NCBI GenBank assembly: GCA_016182605.1 | Contig: JACPGE010000114.1 | Coordinates: 1 to 40,182 of the forward strand | DNA from: Candidatus Hydrogenedentota bacterium | Lineage (GTDB): Bacteria; Hydrogenedentota; Hydrogenedentia; Hydrogenedentales; JAEUWI01 | DNA length: 40,182 nucleotides | Direction of reading: 5' to 3' | The notes under the pieces: generated by a model | What the model was told of the DNA's origin: nothing | Databases searched by the model: none | Seen by the model: only the letters and a program-made list of their open reading frames with translations | Part shown: one piece after another, positions 2,658 through 34,186 of the stretch | Layout: every line of letters begins with the position of its first letter | Position numbering within the stretch: the stretch's first letter is position 1 | Program-made: the position numbers and the translations under genes

Positions 2658-3944
2658 ATGAAACACATCAAGTGGTTCCTTTGGGCCGGGGTGGCGCTGC
2701 TGCTGGCATTCTTAACGCAAAGCCCGTATGCGGCCTTTGCGATCTACACCTTTTTGCTGTTGACGCTGCTGGCGCATTTTTCATCGCTGGCGTGGCTGAG
2801 CGGCCTGGACTGCCGGCGCAGCGTGAATGTGGAGACGGTGCAGCAGGGGGAAGAGGTAGAGGTTGAGGTGGTGGTGGAGAACAAGCGGGGCTGGCCGATC
2901 CCCTGGATCTACTTTGAGGACTATTATCCGGCGGATTTTCCGCGGCAGGGCGAGAACATGCGGCTGGCGGTGTTGATGCCGGGCCGGTCCATCACGATGA
3001 AGTACCGGATTATGTGTCCGCGGCGGGGCTACCACCGCATCGGGCCGTTGCTGATGGAGACGGGGGATCTCTTTGGCTTGCAGCGGCGCTTCCGGACGGG
3101 GGTGCAGCAGCATTATATCTCGGTGCTGCCCACGATAGCCTATATCGAGACCTTTAACGTGGCGACGAAGCGGCCGCAGGGTCCGGTGCGGCTGTCGAAC
3201 CGGATCTATGTGGACCCGACGCGGATCAACAGCATCCGGGAGTATGTTCCGGGCGATCCGTTGAGCTCGATCCACTGGAAGGCGACGGCGCGCACGGGCC
3301 GGCTGCATGTGAAGACGCACGAGCCGAGCAGTGTGATGGGGGGGACGCTGCTGCTGGATCTTCATGACGAGAGTTACCTGCCGGAGGAGAAGGAAGAGCG
3401 CATGGAGCTGGCGATCACGATCACGGCTTCGATTGCGTATCTGCTGCAGATGTCCGGGGAGCAGGTGGGGATGATTACGAACGGTCAGGACGCGGCAGAA
3501 GCGGCGGCGTATGAAGTGGATGCGCAGGAGACGAATGCGCGGGACGAAGTGGACGCGGCGGTGGAAGGGGAAGCGATCTCCGATCGGATCAATCCGCTCT
3601 CGGTGCCGACAGTGCGTTCTCCGGCGCAGGCGCAGAAGATCGCGGAGAATCTGGCACGGGTGATTCCGGGTCAGGGCCTGGACGCGGCGGGGCTGATCTT
3701 GAATGAGTTCCGGCGCTTGCCGCGCGATGCGGCGCTGCTTCCGGTCTTGCCGTTTGTGGACGAGCGGCTGGCGCTGACGCTGGGATCGATGAAGCTGAGC
3801 GGGTTCAATGTGACGGTGTTTCTGGTGAAGAATCCCACGGGCTACAAGGAGGCGGCGGGGCTGCTGGCGCAACACAATATCCACTGTTTTCATATCGAGC
3901 ATGAATGGCAATTGCATGAAATTTCGCCCGCAAAGATTTGTTAG
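2658..3944 (+). CDS. DUF58 domain protein
   Basis: A 428-residue protein anchored by two N-terminal membrane helices (about 5-22 and 27-48), followed by a beta-rich region and the DUF58 signature at about residues 195-222: YVPGDPLSSIHWKATART, then GRLHVKTHE. DUF58 proteins usually sit in MoxR-AAA-ATPase operons with transglutaminase/DUF4129 proteins. Their von-Willebrand-like domain is thought to act in assembling or maturing other proteins, but the precise function is unknown. Residues about 275-330 are an acidic, low-complexity insertion (runs of Ala/Glu/Asp). Full length for the family. Next on the same strand is a DUF4129 protein, the expected partner. No MoxR ATPase lies nearby. The mRNA is probably leaderless. 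Confidence 0.85.
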   Translation: MKHIKWFLWAGVALLLAFLTQSPYAAFAIYTFLLLTLLAHFSSLAWLSGLDCRRSVNVETVQQGEEVEVEVVVENKRGWPIPWIYFEDYYPADFPRQGENMRLAVLMPGRSITMKYRIMCPRRGYHRIGPLLMETGDLFGLQRRFRTGVQQHYISVLPTIAYIETFNVATKRPQGPVRLSNRIYVDPTRINSIREYVPGDPLSSIHWKATARTGRLHVKTHEPSSVMGGTLLLDLHDESYLPEEKEERMELAITITASIAYLLQMSGEQVGMITNGQDAAEAAAYEVDAQETNARDEVDAAVEGEAISDRINPLSVPTVRSPAQAQKIAENLARVIPGQGLDAAGLILNEFRRLPRDAALLPVLPFVDERLALTLGSMKLSGFNVTVFLVKNPTGYKEAAGLLAQHNIHCFHIEHEWQLHEISPAKIC

Positions 3945-28335: not shown

Positions 28336-28573
28336 GGCGTTCCCCTTCGAATAGCGTTCATTCCGCGTCACCGGTGTGGGAGGTTGACGTCCAAGCAGGC
28401 CATATGTTGCCACATAAATACAGTACCCAAAGTATTTGGGCGTTTTCAATATTCATTTCCTGGCCGCCTGGAGGCGTTGCGTTCAGACAGCGCGCCTTCA
28501 GACAGCGCAGTTGCAAAACGGGCTGGCCTGTGTTAAATTTACGGCGAAGGAAACGGTTGTTTTGGCTTCCACC
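28336..28573. other. Divergent promoter region, HPt / leucine leader
   Basis: TTCAGACAGCGC occurs twice as a direct repeat with a 15-base period (28482-28493 and 28497-28508). It is followed at once by TTGCAA (28511-28516) and, after a long spacer, TTAAAT (28534-28539), a weak promoter candidate for the leader transcript. The direct repeats could be operator half-sites. No gene is supported here. Confidence 0.4.
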
Positions 28574-28654
28574 ATGCACACATTGGCACTGTCGCACACG
28601 CTGCTCCGACTGCGGAGCGGCGACGGGTCCATTGTGCCGCGAGGTGCCGGTTAG
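28574..28654 (+). CDS. Leucine-rich leader peptide ORF (attenuator)
   Basis: A 26-codon ORF reading MHTLALSHTLLRLR, then SGDGSIVPRGAG. Five of the first 13 residues are Leu, four as CTG/CTC/CTG/CTG and one as TTG, with three leucines in four codons at 28601-28612. An in-frame TTG at 28562 with AAGGA at 28547-28551 is an alternative start, as the ATG has no good ribosome-binding site. It lies upstream of a terminator and a 2-isopropylmalate-synthase-like gene, the place occupied by leuL-type leaders in enterobacteria. Translation is inferred from composition and position only. Confidence 0.6.
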   Translation: MHTLALSHTLLRLRSGDGSIVPRGAG

Positions 28655-28683
28655 CGTTTTCAACATCCATCGGTAACGAATTC

Positions 28684-28716
28684 AAGGCCACGGACCCGCA
28701 CGGTTCGTGGCCTTTT
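28684..28716 (+). terminator. Intrinsic terminator of the leader (attenuator)
   Basis: AAGGCCACG (28684-28692) pairs with CGTGGCCTT (28706-28714), 13-base loop, followed by a short TTTT-C-T run. The 5' shoulder and loop hold GGACCCG (28692-28698), which is exactly complementary to CGGGTCC at 28624-28630 inside the leader ORF; pairing of these two would open the terminator stem. It lies 30 bases after the leader stop codon and about 170 bases before the LeuA-like start. Confidence 0.65.
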
Positions 28717-28758
28717 CTGTATTGCGCCGGAGTGCGCCACACGAAAGGAGGTGTTTCC

Positions 28759-28779
28759 ATGGAATTGGGGCTGCGATAG
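28759..28779 (+). CDS. Tiny ORF with perfect Shine-Dalgarno
   Basis: ATG followed by five codons and TAG (MELGLR), preceded by AAAGGAGGTG at 28744-28753 with five bases spacing, the best ribosome-binding site in the window. Two of its six codons are Leu. The stop codon overlaps the 5' arm of the hairpin at 28779-28820. It may couple translation to folding of the leader. Confidence 0.4.
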   Translation: MELGLR

Positions 28780-28853
28780 TCCGTTCCATCCTGCTGCCGC
28801 GGTGATGGAAGTGAACGGACCCTGTTTCATCACACGAATGGCACTACCGCGGC
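28779..28853 (+). promoter_or_regulatory. Alternative RNA hairpins upstream of LeuA-like gene
   Basis: GTCCGTTC (28779-28786) pairs with GAACGGAC (28813-28820), with CATC/GATG extending the stem inward. In the loop, GCCGCGGT (28796-28803) is fully complementary to ACCGCGGC (28846-28853), 30 bases before the LeuA-like start. The two pairings could alternate, or form a pseudoknot. Function is inferred from position. Confidence 0.4.
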
Positions 28854-28883
28854 GTATGCGCGGAACAAAAAGGCAGGACGAAC

Positions 28884-30107
28884 ATGAAACCGTACATTAG
28901 AATATTGGACACCACCCTTCGCGACGGGGAGCAGACCCCCGGCGTGCATTTGGATGTGGAAGAGAAGATAGCAATCGCACAGGAAATTGCGGGCTTGGGC
29001 GTGGATACTTTGGAGGCGGGCTTTCCGGCGTCGTCTCCAGGCGATTTTGAGGCGGTACGCCGGATAGCCGGGATGGTGCGCGGTTGCGAAGTGGCGGCAT
29101 TGTGCCGTTGCCGCCCGCAGGACATCGCGGCGGCCGCGGAGGCGCTTGCACCGGCAGAGCGCCCGGTGATTCACCTTGTGCTTGGGATCTCGGAGATCCA
29201 TCTGGAGAAGAAGCTTGGCATGAGCCGCGCGGCAGCGGCGCGCAGCATTGCCGAATGCACCCGCATCGCACGCAGTCACGCGGCGGCGGTGCAGTTCAGC
29301 TTCGAGGATGCGACGCGCGCGGACCCGATTTTTCTCCGGCAATGCGTGGACACGGCGATCGAACACGGGGCCACGCGCGTGAACCTGGCGGATACCGTGG
29401 GCTGCGCCTTGCCGCAGGACTTTGGCGCGCTGGTGTCGGGCATCGTGGCGTTTGCGGGGCCGGACATCATAGTGTCCGCGCATTGTCACAACGACATGGG
29501 GCTTGCGACGGCGAACACCATCGCGGCGATTCAGCGCGGCGCGCGACAGGTGGAGGTCACGGTGAACGGCATCGGCGAGCGCGCGGGCAATACGGCGCTG
29601 GAAGAGGTCGCGGTGATACTTCACGCGACGGGCATGGCGCGGCACGGCCTGGACCTCACGAGGATCGCCGCGTTGAGCGCGCGGGTCGCCGCAGCCACCG
29701 GGGTGCCGGTGCAGCCGAACCGTCCTGTGGTGGGCCGCAACGCGTTTGCCCACAGCAGCGGCATCCACCAGGACGGCATCTTGAAGGCGCCGGAGATCTA
29801 TGAGCATGTGCGCCCGCAATGGGTGGGCGTGGCCGGTCACCGGTTCATCCTCACAGCCCGATCGGGGCGGCATGCGGTGGCCCATGTGGCGCGGGAGAAC
29901 GGTTTTGCCGTAGCGGCGGAGGAACTGGACTCGGTGTACGCCGGTTTTATTGCCCAGGCGGACGCGACACGGGGCGAGGTGGGTGTGGAGTGCCTGCGTG
30001 CCGTGGTGGAACGGGTGCGGTCGGCGCCTGCGCGGCGCGTGGCCGCCCGGGGCGTTGTGCGGGAGTATAAATTCGCGCGGAGCGCCTGGCATTTGCTAGA
30101 CTATTGA
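28884..30107 (+). CDS. 2-Isopropylmalate synthase-like enzyme lacking the regulatory domain
   Basis: A 407-residue cytosolic enzyme of the DRE-TIM metallolyase group, which condenses acetyl-CoA with a 2-oxo acid (for LeuA, 2-oxoisovalerate in leucine synthesis). Visible sites: DTTLRDGEQTPG (Arg13, Asp14), the metal-binding SAHCHNDMGLATANT (His200, His202), GIGERAGNTALEEV and the LeuA-type SSGIHQDGILK (HQDG at 295-298), then TARSGRHAVAHVARENGF, which fits LeuA subdomain II. LeuA enzymes are usually about 510 residues; here the C-terminal leucine-binding dimer domain is missing. A homocitrate- or citramalate-synthase role is possible, but the leucine-rich leader favours LeuA. AGGCAGGA precedes the ATG. 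tRNA-Ser follows after 22 bases. Confidence 0.8.
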   Translation: MKPYIRILDTTLRDGEQTPGVHLDVEEKIAIAQEIAGLGVDTLEAGFPASSPGDFEAVRRIAGMVRGCEVAALCRCRPQDIAAAAEALAPAERPVIHLVLGISEIHLEKKLGMSRAAAARSIAECTRIARSHAAAVQFSFEDATRADPIFLRQCVDTAIEHGATRVNLADTVGCALPQDFGALVSGIVAFAGPDIIVSAHCHNDMGLATANTIAAIQRGARQVEVTVNGIGERAGNTALEEVAVILHATGMARHGLDLTRIAALSARVAAATGVPVQPNRPVVGRNAFAHSSGIHQDGILKAPEIYEHVRPQWVGVAGHRFILTARSGRHAVAHVARENGFAVAAEELDSVYAGFIAQADATRGEVGVECLRAVVERVRSAPARRVAARGVVREYKFARSAWHLLDY

Positions 30108-30129: not shown

Positions 30130-30219
30130 GGAGAGGTGGCCGAGTGGTTGAAGGCGGCGGTCTCGAAAGCCGTTGACGGGGCAACCCGTTCCAGGGTTCG
30201 AATCCCTGCCTCTCCGCCA
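30130..30219 (+). tRNA. tRNA-Ser (anticodon CGA)
   Basis: A class II tRNA of 90 bases with encoded CCA. The acceptor arms GGAGAGG and CCTCTCC pair, the D arm has GGCCGAGTGGTTGAAGGC, the anticodon loop reads CTCGAAA (anticodon CGA, reading UCG), a long variable arm follows, and the T arm has GGTTCGAATCC. The discriminator is G. It lies 22 bases after the LeuA-like gene and is followed by a terminator, so it may be read from the leuA promoter; no good promoter of its own is visible. Confidence 0.95.
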
Positions 30220-31567: not shown

Positions 31568-34186
31568 GTGCAGCCCATGACCGTGACATCAGCGACGCTC
31601 AGGCCCCGCATTGAAGCGTGCGGGTACACCGGTGATCGGCTAAGGTCAAACTATTCGTTCGGCGCGGGCAGTGTTGCGCTTGGCGGCTTCATCGGAAAGC
31701 CTTGGGACGCCCGTTCGGCGTGCCTCGCGGTCGTCGATGCGACCACGGACAGCCGTCTTACCGCGCACGCTTGCATCGAGTTTGGCGCCCCCACAGCGCT
31801 CGTTTGCCGGGGAGACTCGCTGGATTGGTGGCAACTCTCGATCACCGGGCCACGCGAGCCGAAGATCGTCCGCGCGAGTGAAGTCGAAGGGTTCTTTCGC
31901 GAGCACGCCGCGCAATTGAAACCAGAAAACATTTATGCGGCCAAACTGCACCGGCCAGTCCCTTCCGGTGTGCAGATGCAGTTCGTGGATGTGGGCCTGA
32001 TGCCGGCACTGGAACGCAAGGCGGGCGAGGCGCTCAATCGGCTGGTAACATACGCAATCCGCACGCTAATGGATGAACTGGGCGAGAAGGTTCGCTCTCG
32101 TTCGGACCATGAGGGTGTATACAAGTCGGTCTTTTGGCTACTCGCTGCGAAGCTGTTGAAAGAAAAGGCGGTTAAGGGTTTTAAGTCACTTGATCTTAGC
32201 GACGCCAGTGACGTGTTTGACGTGGTGGGCCAGCACTACAAGGATGCACGTGACTACCCGCCGGGAGATCGAACCTGGAAGCCCGCTTTGCTTCGTGTTG
32301 CTTCCAGTATCGCAGGGTGGGGCGGATTGGGAAACATCACGGCTGAATCGTTGGCATTCCTTTACGAGACCGCGATGATCGATGGCCCGAAGGGGAGGGG
32401 CAGAAAGGGCGCCGGCGCGGGCCAGTCCGATGTCCGTAAGGCGTTGGGAATTCACAGCACGCCCTCAATCCTTGTGGATCACATGCTCTCGCAGGTGTGG
32501 CCGCTGGTGGATGCGGACAAACTTGCGGATCAGTGCGTATTCGAACCCGCGTGTGGGCACGCCGCGTTCCTCACCGCGGCACTCCGTGACATCCGAAACT
32601 ACTCCGGCCTGGAGGATAGTGCCGCGCGTCACCGCTACTTGCGCGGCCGCATCCGGGGAATTGAGGTTGATCCATTCGCAACGGAGATCGCGAAGCTCTC
32701 GCTTACGCTTGCGGATGTGCCCCACGGCAATACGTGGCGAATTGACACGGGCGACATGTTCAGGCCCGGCGTACTGCGGGATGCATCCAAGTGGGCAACG
32801 ATTGTGTTGTCCAACCCACCTTACGAGGACTTTAAGAAGACTGGAGCGAGTCGTTGGCTCGAATCCGAAGATCCGGTTACAGCTCAGACCAAGGCCGTCG
32901 AGATGCTCAAGCGGGTGGTGCCCAACCTCCGGCCCGGCGCGGTCTTTGGTTTTGTGTTGCCGCAGGGGACGCTCTACGACCGCGAGGCCAAGCAACTGCG
33001 CAAGGATTTGTTGAAGTCGTGTGAGGTCGCGGAGATTTCACTGTTTGAAGACAAGCTGTTCAGCGTCGCCGACCACGAGGCATGCATTGTGCTGGGCCGT
33101 AGAAAGAACGGTAAAGCGCGTGTAACTACAGTCATGTACCGCCGGGTGCGCAACAGGGATATGGACGATTTCAAGACTGCCTTAGACTTCACCCATCAAG
33201 ACGGGCTTGAGCCGTCCGAGCTGGGCCGCGACGAGGAAGTAAGTCTGTACGAGCCTGACTTGCGAAATGTGTGGAAGTACCTTGGCGAAATGCCACAACT
33301 GGGCGAGACGTTCGATGTGCAGAAGGGGTTCGAGCTGAAAGCAAGAGACGCACTGGGTAACCGCACAGTCGTTAGTCCAGCGCCGAAGCCTGGGTTCGCA
33401 AAGGCCGTGCTTCGCGCCAGCGACGACTACACCGTGTGGGAACTCCCAAGAGCTGAGTGGGTGGACCTTCGGCCCTGCAACGTGCGCAGGCCCGGTGCCG
33501 CGACCTTGCTTGGCACGCCACAGGTGCTGTTGAACTACGCGCGCATATCGCGCGTCTCATGGCGGCTTGCAGCGGTTAAAGACCGTGAGGGTCTTGCCGT
33601 ATCGAGCAGATTCCTCGCATTCCGTGCGAAGAACGCTTGTATCGCCTTGGACACGCTTTGGGCTGTGCTCAATTCACCAATCGCGAACGCGTATTCGTAC
33701 TGCTGGACAAGCAAGCGTGAAACACTTGGCAAGATGTGGCTCGCCATGCCACTGCCGGTACCTACGAAGGATCAGGTCAAGGATATCGAAGCCAGTGCCG
33801 CGGAGTATCTGAAACTTGTCAAGCGTACGAGCGAGTTCATGGTTATGGGACCGGAAGAAAGTATTATCCGGCGGGCACTGCTCAATCTCGACGCAGCTGT
33901 GCTGCGTCTGTACAACCTGCCGCCCGTGCTTGAGCGCGAGTTGCTATCCATTTTCGATGACGTGGAACGCCCGGGCGTGGGCTGCACGTTTTGCGGCTAC
34001 CCTCCGGGATGGTCCAGTCGCCCCGTAGCGCCGTCAACCGAACTGCCCAGCGACGACCGGCCGATTTGGGAGCGCATCGCCGAATTTGCAGCAGCACTTC
34101 CCGAAGAAGCGATCGCGGGTATTCCCATCGACGGGGCATCGCAACTGGATCACTACTTGTATGGAGCACCAAAGAGGAGTCTATGA
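31568..34186 (+). CDS. Single-chain N6-adenine DNA methyltransferase (type IIG / Eco57I-like)
   Basis: An 872-residue protein. Residues about 1-150 are of unknown fold; about 155-290 look helical. Then the N6-adenine methyltransferase core: SAM motif I VFEPACGHAAFL (325-334), GIEVDPFATEIAKLSL and catalytic motif IV SNPPY (415-419). A C-terminal target-recognition-like region follows (about 560-800), with CTFCGYPPGW (Cys-x2-Cys) near residue 825. It may be a type IIG restriction-modification enzyme or a solitary methylase with defence role; I could not find a clear PD-(D/E)xK nuclease motif. The start is GTG at 31568 (AGAGGA ten bases before). It overlaps the PIN gene by ATGA. Codon use is mixed and unlike the neighbours, suggesting transfer. 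Confidence 0.82.
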   Translation: MQPMTVTSATLRPRIEACGYTGDRLRSNYSFGAGSVALGGFIGKPWDARSACLAVVDATTDSRLTAHACIEFGAPTALVCRGDSLDWWQLSITGPREPKIVRASEVEGFFREHAAQLKPENIYAAKLHRPVPSGVQMQFVDVGLMPALERKAGEALNRLVTYAIRTLMDELGEKVRSRSDHEGVYKSVFWLLAAKLLKEKAVKGFKSLDLSDASDVFDVVGQHYKDARDYPPGDRTWKPALLRVASSIAGWGGLGNITAESLAFLYETAMIDGPKGRGRKGAGAGQSDVRKALGIHSTPSILVDHMLSQVWPLVDADKLADQCVFEPACGHAAFLTAALRDIRNYSGLEDSAARHRYLRGRIRGIEVDPFATEIAKLSLTLADVPHGNTWRIDTGDMFRPGVLRDASKWATIVLSNPPYEDFKKTGASRWLESEDPVTAQTKAVEMLKRVVPNLRPGAVFGFVLPQGTLYDREAKQLRKDLLKSCEVAEISLFEDKLFSVADHEACIVLGRRKNGKARVTTVMYRRVRNRDMDDFKTALDFTHQDGLEPSELGRDEEVSLYEPDLRNVWKYLGEMPQLGETFDVQKGFELKARDALGNRTVVSPAPKPGFAKAVLRASDDYTVWELPRAEWVDLRPCNVRRPGAATLLGTPQVLLNYARISRVSWRLAAVKDREGLAVSSRFLAFRAKNACIALDTLWAVLNSPIANAYSYCWTSKRETLGKMWLAMPLPVPTKDQVKDIEASAAEYLKLVKRTSEFMVMGPEESIIRRALLNLDAAVLRLYNLPPVLERELLSIFDDVERPGVGCTFCGYPPGWSSRPVAPSTELPSDDRPIWERIAEFAAALPEEAIAGIPIDGASQLDHYLYGAPKRSL

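What the first reader, a model, noticed from the sequence alone, without database searches (positions are those of the whole stretch)
28562..28883. Leucine attenuator in front of a LeuA-like gene without regulatory domain
Seen: a 26-codon ORF with five Leu in its first 13 codons, a terminator hairpin at 28684-28716, and CGGGTCC (28624-28630) exactly complementary to GGACCCG (28692-28698) in the terminator. Known: enterobacterial leu operons use a Leu-rich leader peptide (leuL) to attenuate transcription. Inferred: ribosome stalling at the Leu codons lets 28624-28630 pair with 28692-28698 and opens the terminator. The enzyme downstream lacks the C-terminal leucine-sensing domain, so control may have moved to the leader. 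Ribosome-mediated leu attenuation is little described outside Proteobacteria and Actinobacteria.
Basis: partly seen in the sequence, partly recalled or inferred. Interest (0 to 1): 0.72.

Follow-up and report, generated by a model that had tools for sequence, protein, structure and literature searches.

The report
Leucine attenuator of an extra leuA
In an uncultured bacterial phylum (Hydrogenedentota), a spare copy of a leucine-biosynthesis enzyme gene sits behind an RNA switch in which a ribosome reading a leucine-rich mini-gene appears to decide whether transcription goes on; a second mini-gene next to the enzyme start is also conserved, and in several lineages the enzyme has decayed or vanished while the switch remains.

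Summary
Confirmed and extended. The leader ORF, terminator and 7-nt complementarity are at the stated coordinates. The phylum is Candidatus Hydrogenedentota. A covariance model of the leader finds it in 31 of 68 genomes held. The leader peptide keeps a Leu run (e.g. SLLLPLLLL). The terminator (97% of cells paired) and the competing antiterminator (94%) both covary; slid controls fall to at most 52% and 45%. Ribosome-mediated leucine attenuation is therefore well supported; leucine dependence itself is untested. Corrections: the leader probably starts at TTG 28562, and every near-complete genome also has LeuA/CimA enzymes with the regulatory domain, so this short LeuA is an extra. (2) The same leader stands before LeuA proteins that have lost active-site residues (6 genomes), before truncated, deleted or fragmentary copies (4), or before no leuA at all (2). 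The attenuator is a new member of a known kind; the double-uORF layout and the survival of the leader after enzyme decay make it an unusual variant.

The parts
28511..28539 (+). Putative sigma70-type promoter TTGCAA-17-TAAATT
   Evidence: Best promoter-like match 22 nt upstream of TTG 28562; a TTG...-17/18-TA..T box lies 9-34 nt upstream of the leader start in nearly all relatives. Consensus match only; missed by the stricter scan.
28547..28551 (+). Candidate Shine-Dalgarno (AAGGA) of the leader ORF
   Evidence: Sequence; similar AGGA motifs precede many relatives' leader starts.
28562..28654 (+). Leader ORF1, Leu-rich leader peptide (TTG 28562 or ATG 28574, stop TAG 28652)
   Evidence: homologous Leu-rich ORFs; leader model R2 matches 28562-28647, E 9e-8.
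28571..28650 (+). Leader hairpins P1/P2 that cover the Leu codons and hold the 5' half of the antiterminator
   Evidence: P1/P2 consensus 88% of cells paired, 14 pairs with double changes, slid controls 33-43%; in the MFE fold.
28624..28630 (+). Antiterminator 5' segment CGGGTCC
   Evidence: Homologous columns pair with the terminator 5' arm in 94% of cells, 5 of 7 pairs with double changes; per-sequence complementarity.
28684..28714 (+). Intrinsic terminator hairpin, T-rich tail to about 28719
   Evidence: 97% of cells paired, 7 of 12 pairs with double changes.
28692..28698 (+). Antiterminator 3' segment GGACCCG, inside the terminator 5' arm and loop
28744..28753 (+). Near-perfect Shine-Dalgarno AAAGGAGGTG of uORF2
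   Evidence: Conserved with 7-9 nt to ATG in all 18 close loci; element-2 model R1.
28759..28779 (+). uORF2, MELGLR* (ATG GAA TTG GGG CTG CGA TAG)
   Evidence: M[D/E]x[G/E]L conserved; Leu5 uses all four CTN codons and the same-family stop is TAG, TGA or TAA; bimodal length in 24 loci.
28761..28787 (+). Hairpin H2 starting in the uORF2 start codon
   Evidence: Predicted in most loci, mean z -3.0; covariation not shown on alignment A4.
28884..30107 (+). Short LeuA-like gene (407 aa, HMGL-like + HCS_D2 domains, no LeuA_dimer domain)

Best explanation
The 5' leader of this extra, regulatory-domain-less leuA is a ribosome-mediated leucine attenuator. With leucyl-tRNA plentiful, a ribosome passes the Leu codons quickly; the antiterminator segment stays covered or sits in the P1/P2 hairpins, the terminator forms and transcription stops at about 28716. 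With leucyl-tRNA short, the ribosome stalls in the Leu run and opens P1/P2; 28624-28630 pairs with 28692-28698, the terminator is prevented and leuA is transcribed. A second mini-ORF (28759-28779) with a near-perfect Shine-Dalgarno then probably sets how well leuA is translated. Shown: ORF1 with its Leu run, the promoter-like box, two mutually exclusive covarying helices, a terminator, and uORF2 with a conserved start, a Leu codon and a constrained stop position. Inferred: leucine-dependent stalling and read-through, and the role of uORF2.
For: Leader found by a covariance model in 31 of 68 Hydrogenedentota genomes. Leu run kept with varied Leu codons; 163 Leu in 715 leader residues. Antiterminator helix 94% paired, 5 of 7 pairs with double changes, slid controls at most 45%. 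Terminator 97%, slid controls at most 52%. P1/P2 88% with 14 double-change pairs. Promoter-like boxes at similar distance in nearly all loci. No T-box, riboswitch or other Rfam family in the leader. Target is an IPMS-family enzyme, and only this leuA, not the main one, has the leader. uORF2: 8 loci stop at codon 6-9, 16 run into leuA, none in between; 7.5 long ones expected from shuffles.
Against: No expression data. Alignment shuffles do not remove relatedness, although slid controls and de novo model hits argue against an artefact. In the f11 genera and in the window the Leu run is shorter (4-5 Leu). The substrate of the enzyme is not proven; its scores lie below the curated IPMS cut-offs. 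In G009 and G035 the leader has no leuA to control.
Confidence: 0.86

Rival explanations
1. The leader is (or has become) mainly a stand-alone small RNA or leader peptide acting in trans, as described for rnTrpL/peTrpL of Sinorhizobium; control of leuA in cis is secondary.
For: Leader, promoter-like box and terminator persist where leuA is gone (G009; G035 with a convergent neighbour) or reduced to pieces (G023, G014). ORF1/P1/P2 are conserved at nucleotide level beyond what Leu codons need. Trans action of a leader peptide is known (PMC7298713, abstract seen).
Against: Most loci keep a leuA-like gene and a covarying antiterminator, which only makes sense in cis. G024 and G065 show leaders without a terminator, i.e. 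decay. No target was identified.
Confidence: 0.12
2. Non-translational attenuator: a protein or small molecule binds the conserved P1/P2 hairpin and switches the terminator; the Leu-rich ORF is incidental.
For: P1/P2 is strongly conserved in sequence and structure.
Against: The ORF keeps its frame and Leu run in all 25 loci listed, with in-frame indels of 3 nt and varied Leu codons, while the other frames often have stops; no Rfam riboswitch match.
Confidence: 0.06
3. Element 2 is not a regulatory uORF but merely a structured translation enhancer or standby site for leuA.
For: Near-perfect SD, hairpin H2 right after it; leuA SD only weakly more sequestered than in shuffles (0.38 vs 0.46, p 0.025).
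Against: uORF2 length is bimodal (6-9 codons or overlapping leuA in two different frames), Leu5 is kept through all four CTN codons, and Arg-stop is kept through different codons in the window's family.
Confidence: 0.3
4. Chance: a random Leu-rich ORF next to an ordinary terminator.
For: In the window alone the Leu run is modest.
Against: Conservation and covariation across many genera.
Confidence: 0.01

Closest known systems
Proteobacterial leu operon attenuator (leuL; Rfam Leu_leader)
   Same: Leu-rich leader peptide, terminator, mutually exclusive antiterminator, upstream of leuA (from general knowledge).
   Different: No Rfam match; unrelated sequence and phylum; single gene, not leuABCD; second uORF before leuA; the target is an extra LeuA without regulatory domain.
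Actinobacterial LEU element (PMC1262725)
   Same: uORF with a Leu-codon run upstream of leuA; RNA-level control.
   Different: There, a conserved pseudoknot or alternative hairpin in which the Leu-codon run pairs with the leuA Shine-Dalgarno; here a strong intrinsic terminator and antiterminator.
Staphylococcus aureus ilv-leu attenuator (PMC5794164)
   Same: Leu-rich attenuator peptide with terminator; tested genetically there.
   Different: Controls a whole operon together with CodY; no second uORF described in the passages read.
Tandem or two-leader attenuators (Salmonella mgtCBR PMC3641672; ermB with ermBL/ermBL2 PMC8274638)
   Same: Two short ORFs in one leader (abstracts).
   Different: Different signals and genes; here the first ORF is a Leu transcription attenuator and the second often overlaps the enzyme start.
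rnTrpL/peTrpL trans-acting attenuator products (PMC7298713)
   Same: Precedent for attenuator products acting without their operon (abstract).
   Different: Trans activity here is only a possibility suggested by orphan leaders.

Membership tests
Ribosome-mediated amino-acid transcription attenuator (class) | Short translated leader ORF with control codons of the pathway amino acid | tested here: met
   Leu-rich ORF1 in the window and relatives. Translation itself inferred from frame conservation.
Ribosome-mediated amino-acid transcription attenuator (class) | Intrinsic terminator between leader ORF and structural gene | tested here: met
Ribosome-mediated amino-acid transcription attenuator (class) | Alternative antiterminator pairing that excludes the terminator | tested here: met
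   94% of cells paired, covarying.
Ribosome-mediated amino-acid transcription attenuator (class) | Read-through depends on charging of the cognate tRNA | not testable with these tools
   Needs a reporter or RNA-seq.
Rfam Leu_leader and other Rfam attenuator or T-box families | Match to the covariance model | tested here: not met
   No Rfam family in 28450-28950 apart from chance-level miRNA hits.
Actinobacterial LEU element | Pseudoknot with the Leu-codon run paired to the leuA Shine-Dalgarno | not tested
   No pseudoknot prediction was run; the terminator/antiterminator layout differs from the published description.
2-isopropylmalate synthase LeuA (TIGR00973/NF002086) | Score above the curated cut-off | tested here: not met
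   420 vs 598.7 and 447 vs 532 bits, since the C-terminal domain is missing; best solved relatives are IPMS, 3rmj first.
2-isopropylmalate synthase LeuA | Catalytic barrel motifs TTLRDGEQ, SAHCHND, SGIHQDG | tested here: met
   Present in the window protein and 15 other intact relatives; lost in whole or part in the six degenerate ones.
2-isopropylmalate synthase LeuA | C-terminal LeuA_dimer (PF08502) regulatory domain | tested here: not met
   Pfam finds only HMGL-like and HCS_D2; two other genes of the genome have PF08502.

The most novel reading that the evidence does not exclude
A two-stage leucine switch not described before: a transcription attenuator followed by a second, strongly initiated uORF that gates translation of leuA by overlapping its start. 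It controls an extra LeuA that in several lineages is turning into a non-catalytic, still selected protein, while the leader itself survives gene loss as a stand-alone RNA.
Probability: 0.2. Interest if true: 0.8.

Novelty: new variant of a known kind. Interest (0 to 1): 0.52.

Why it matters
It adds an uncultured candidate phylum to those with a convincing leucine attenuator and supplies sequence models that find it. It also offers a natural series (intact enzyme, damaged enzyme, degenerate enzyme, fragment, orphan leader) for asking what happens to a cis-regulatory RNA when its gene decays. The second uORF makes a two-layer, transcription-plus-translation leucine switch directly testable in an ordinary reporter strain.

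Tried and rejected
Rfam at gathering and relaxed thresholds: nothing relevant. Operon context: no conserved leu neighbours; the gene looks monocistronic. Similar leader before the main LeuA genes: no conserved one in 20 loci, only three unrelated Leu-rich ORFs by the simple filter. Models R1/R2 against 27 LeuA loci of other phyla: no significant match. H2 hairpin covariation on A4: not supported, although single-sequence folds are stable. Sequestration of the leuA SD: weak. Programmed frameshift from uORF2 into leuA: rejected, because the frame differs between genomes while the overlap is kept. G032 orphan status dropped, because the contig ends just after the terminator.

Full report
OBSERVATION. 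The window is contig C53 of a 6.76-Mb genome. Two database contigs that match relatives G048 and G036 in length and position are titled Candidatus Hydrogenedentota, so that is the phylum. All 68 genomes held for the phylum belong to one order.

COMPARATIVE TEST OF THE ATTENUATOR. Close homologues of the short LeuA occur in 18 of the 68 genomes (G036 has a damaged copy). In 17 of them a Leu-rich ORF of 26-32 codons lies upstream; in the 18th, G001, it is there too, about 620 nt further up because repeat DNA is inserted. Typical peptides are MCNSKHITSLLLPLLLLEDAGSSCLEFPK and MFTNSKHSLELRLPLLLLLEERSSVVPRILIR. Each ORF is followed by a GC-rich terminator with a T-tract. On alignment A2 the terminator is paired in 97% of cells, with double changes in 7 of 12 pairs. 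The competing antiterminator helix (columns 78-84 with 146-152; window 28624-28630 with 28692-28698) is paired in 94% of cells, with double changes in 5 of 7 pairs, while slid controls reach at most 45%. The P1/P2 hairpins that contain the Leu codons are 88% paired, with 14 double-change pairs. A covariance model of the ORF1/P1/P2 core (R2) finds the leader in 31 of 68 genomes, once per genome except for a second, decaying copy in G036. Promoter-like TTG-17/18-TA..T boxes lie just upstream in nearly all loci, including the window (28511-28539). In register with relatives, the window leader starts at TTG 28562 rather than ATG 28574. Two conserved helices that cannot form together, plus a maintained Leu run, is what ribosome-mediated attenuation predicts. 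Leucine dependence itself is inferred.

SECOND ELEMENT. Between terminator and leuA lies AAAGGAGGTG-N5-ATGGAATTGGGGCTGCGATAG (28744-28779). All 18 close loci have it about 100 nt upstream of leuA. A model of it (R1) finds it de novo in six further genomes, always before a LeuA-like gene, plus weak hits. Its codons behave as coding at position 5, where Leu is kept through CTG, CTC, CTA and CTT. In the window's family the ending Arg-stop is kept through CGA, CGT and CGG and through TAG, TGA and TAA. Over 24 loci the ORF either ends after 6-9 codons (8 loci) or runs through the leuA start and ends 61-121 nt inside it (16 loci, two frames); none ends in between. Shuffling the spacer predicts 7.5 long ones (the loci are not fully independent). 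A hairpin starting in its start codon is stable in most loci (mean z -3.0), but covariation was not shown. The leuA Shine-Dalgarno is only slightly more buried than in shuffles (p 0.025). I take uORF2 to be a translated mini-ORF that modulates leuA translation; how it does so is open.

THE GENE AND ITS DECAY. The window protein has the IPMS barrel and its motifs but no LeuA_dimer domain. The genome also has a full LeuA (565-aa ORF) and a CimA-like enzyme with PF08502, as nearly all genomes of the phylum do; so this is an extra isoform, and it is not part of a leu operon. Of the 31 genomes with the leader: 16 have an intact short LeuA; 2 have a truncated or internally deleted one (G029, G036); 6 have degenerate proteins of about 210-330 aa that lack some or all of TTLRDGEQ, HCHND and SGIHQDG (G015, G019, G038, G040, G044, G050); 2 have only fragments (G014 about 100 aa, G023 57 aa); 2 have none (G009; G035, whose next gene is convergent); 1 is undetermined at a contig end (G032); 2 have a leader without a terminator (G024, G065). 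The one close degenerate pair has dN/dS 0.36, against 0.10-0.21 for pairs of intact enzymes: relaxed, but not neutral. The simplest reading is repeated decay of a redundant enzyme, with the small leader lasting longer. A non-catalytic role for the degenerate proteins and a trans role for the leader RNA or peptide are not excluded.

DISTRIBUTION AND PRIOR KNOWLEDGE. Neither model matches 27 LeuA loci from other phyla, and no conserved leader of this kind precedes the main leuA genes. No Rfam family matches. A search of the paper library found no paper naming both Hydrogenedentota and attenuation among the top results; this is not proof of absence.

VERDICT. The finding is real and its mechanism well supported by comparative evidence. 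As an attenuator it is a new member of a known kind; the double-uORF layout and the enzyme decay behind a surviving leader make it an unusual variant.

Noticed in passing
window 28744-28787; L113-L129: Second conserved mini-ORF with near-perfect Shine-Dalgarno and start-codon hairpin between terminator and leuA; length bimodal (6-9 codons, or overlapping leuA).
   Followed up: yes
L158 483-1358, L159 2030-2935, L160 5075-5974, L161, L162, L163 5324-6229: LeuA-like proteins behind the same leader that have lost active-site motifs; one close pair has dN/dS 0.36, i.e. still constrained.
   Followed up: partly
L199 2960-3042; L202 3034-3117 (-); L198 from about 3027: Orphan leaders with promoter-like box and terminator but no leuA (G009, G035), or only a 57-aa C-terminal leuA piece (G023).
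   Followed up: partly
L164 (G036:C35 about 2821-3073, -): Second, decaying copy of the whole leader plus element 2 upstream of an amidohydrolase-like gene.
   Followed up: no
L204 about 1320-1850; L120 (G022) spacer between terminator and uORF2: Repeat DNA of the form GTCATTCCCGCGAAAGCGGGAATCC inserted between terminator and uORF2, leaving both elements intact.
   Followed up: no
window 30130-30219: tRNA-Ser(CGA) gene directly downstream of leuA on the same strand.
   Followed up: no
window 31568-34186: 872-aa protein with N6_Mtase / MmeI_Mtase / Eco57I-type methylase matches (restriction-modification-like).
   Followed up: no
G047:C37:78335-79465 and G049:C740:11232-12407: Distant LeuA-like matches (38-39%) with one in-frame TGA each inside the match, in two genomes of one genus.
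   Followed up: no
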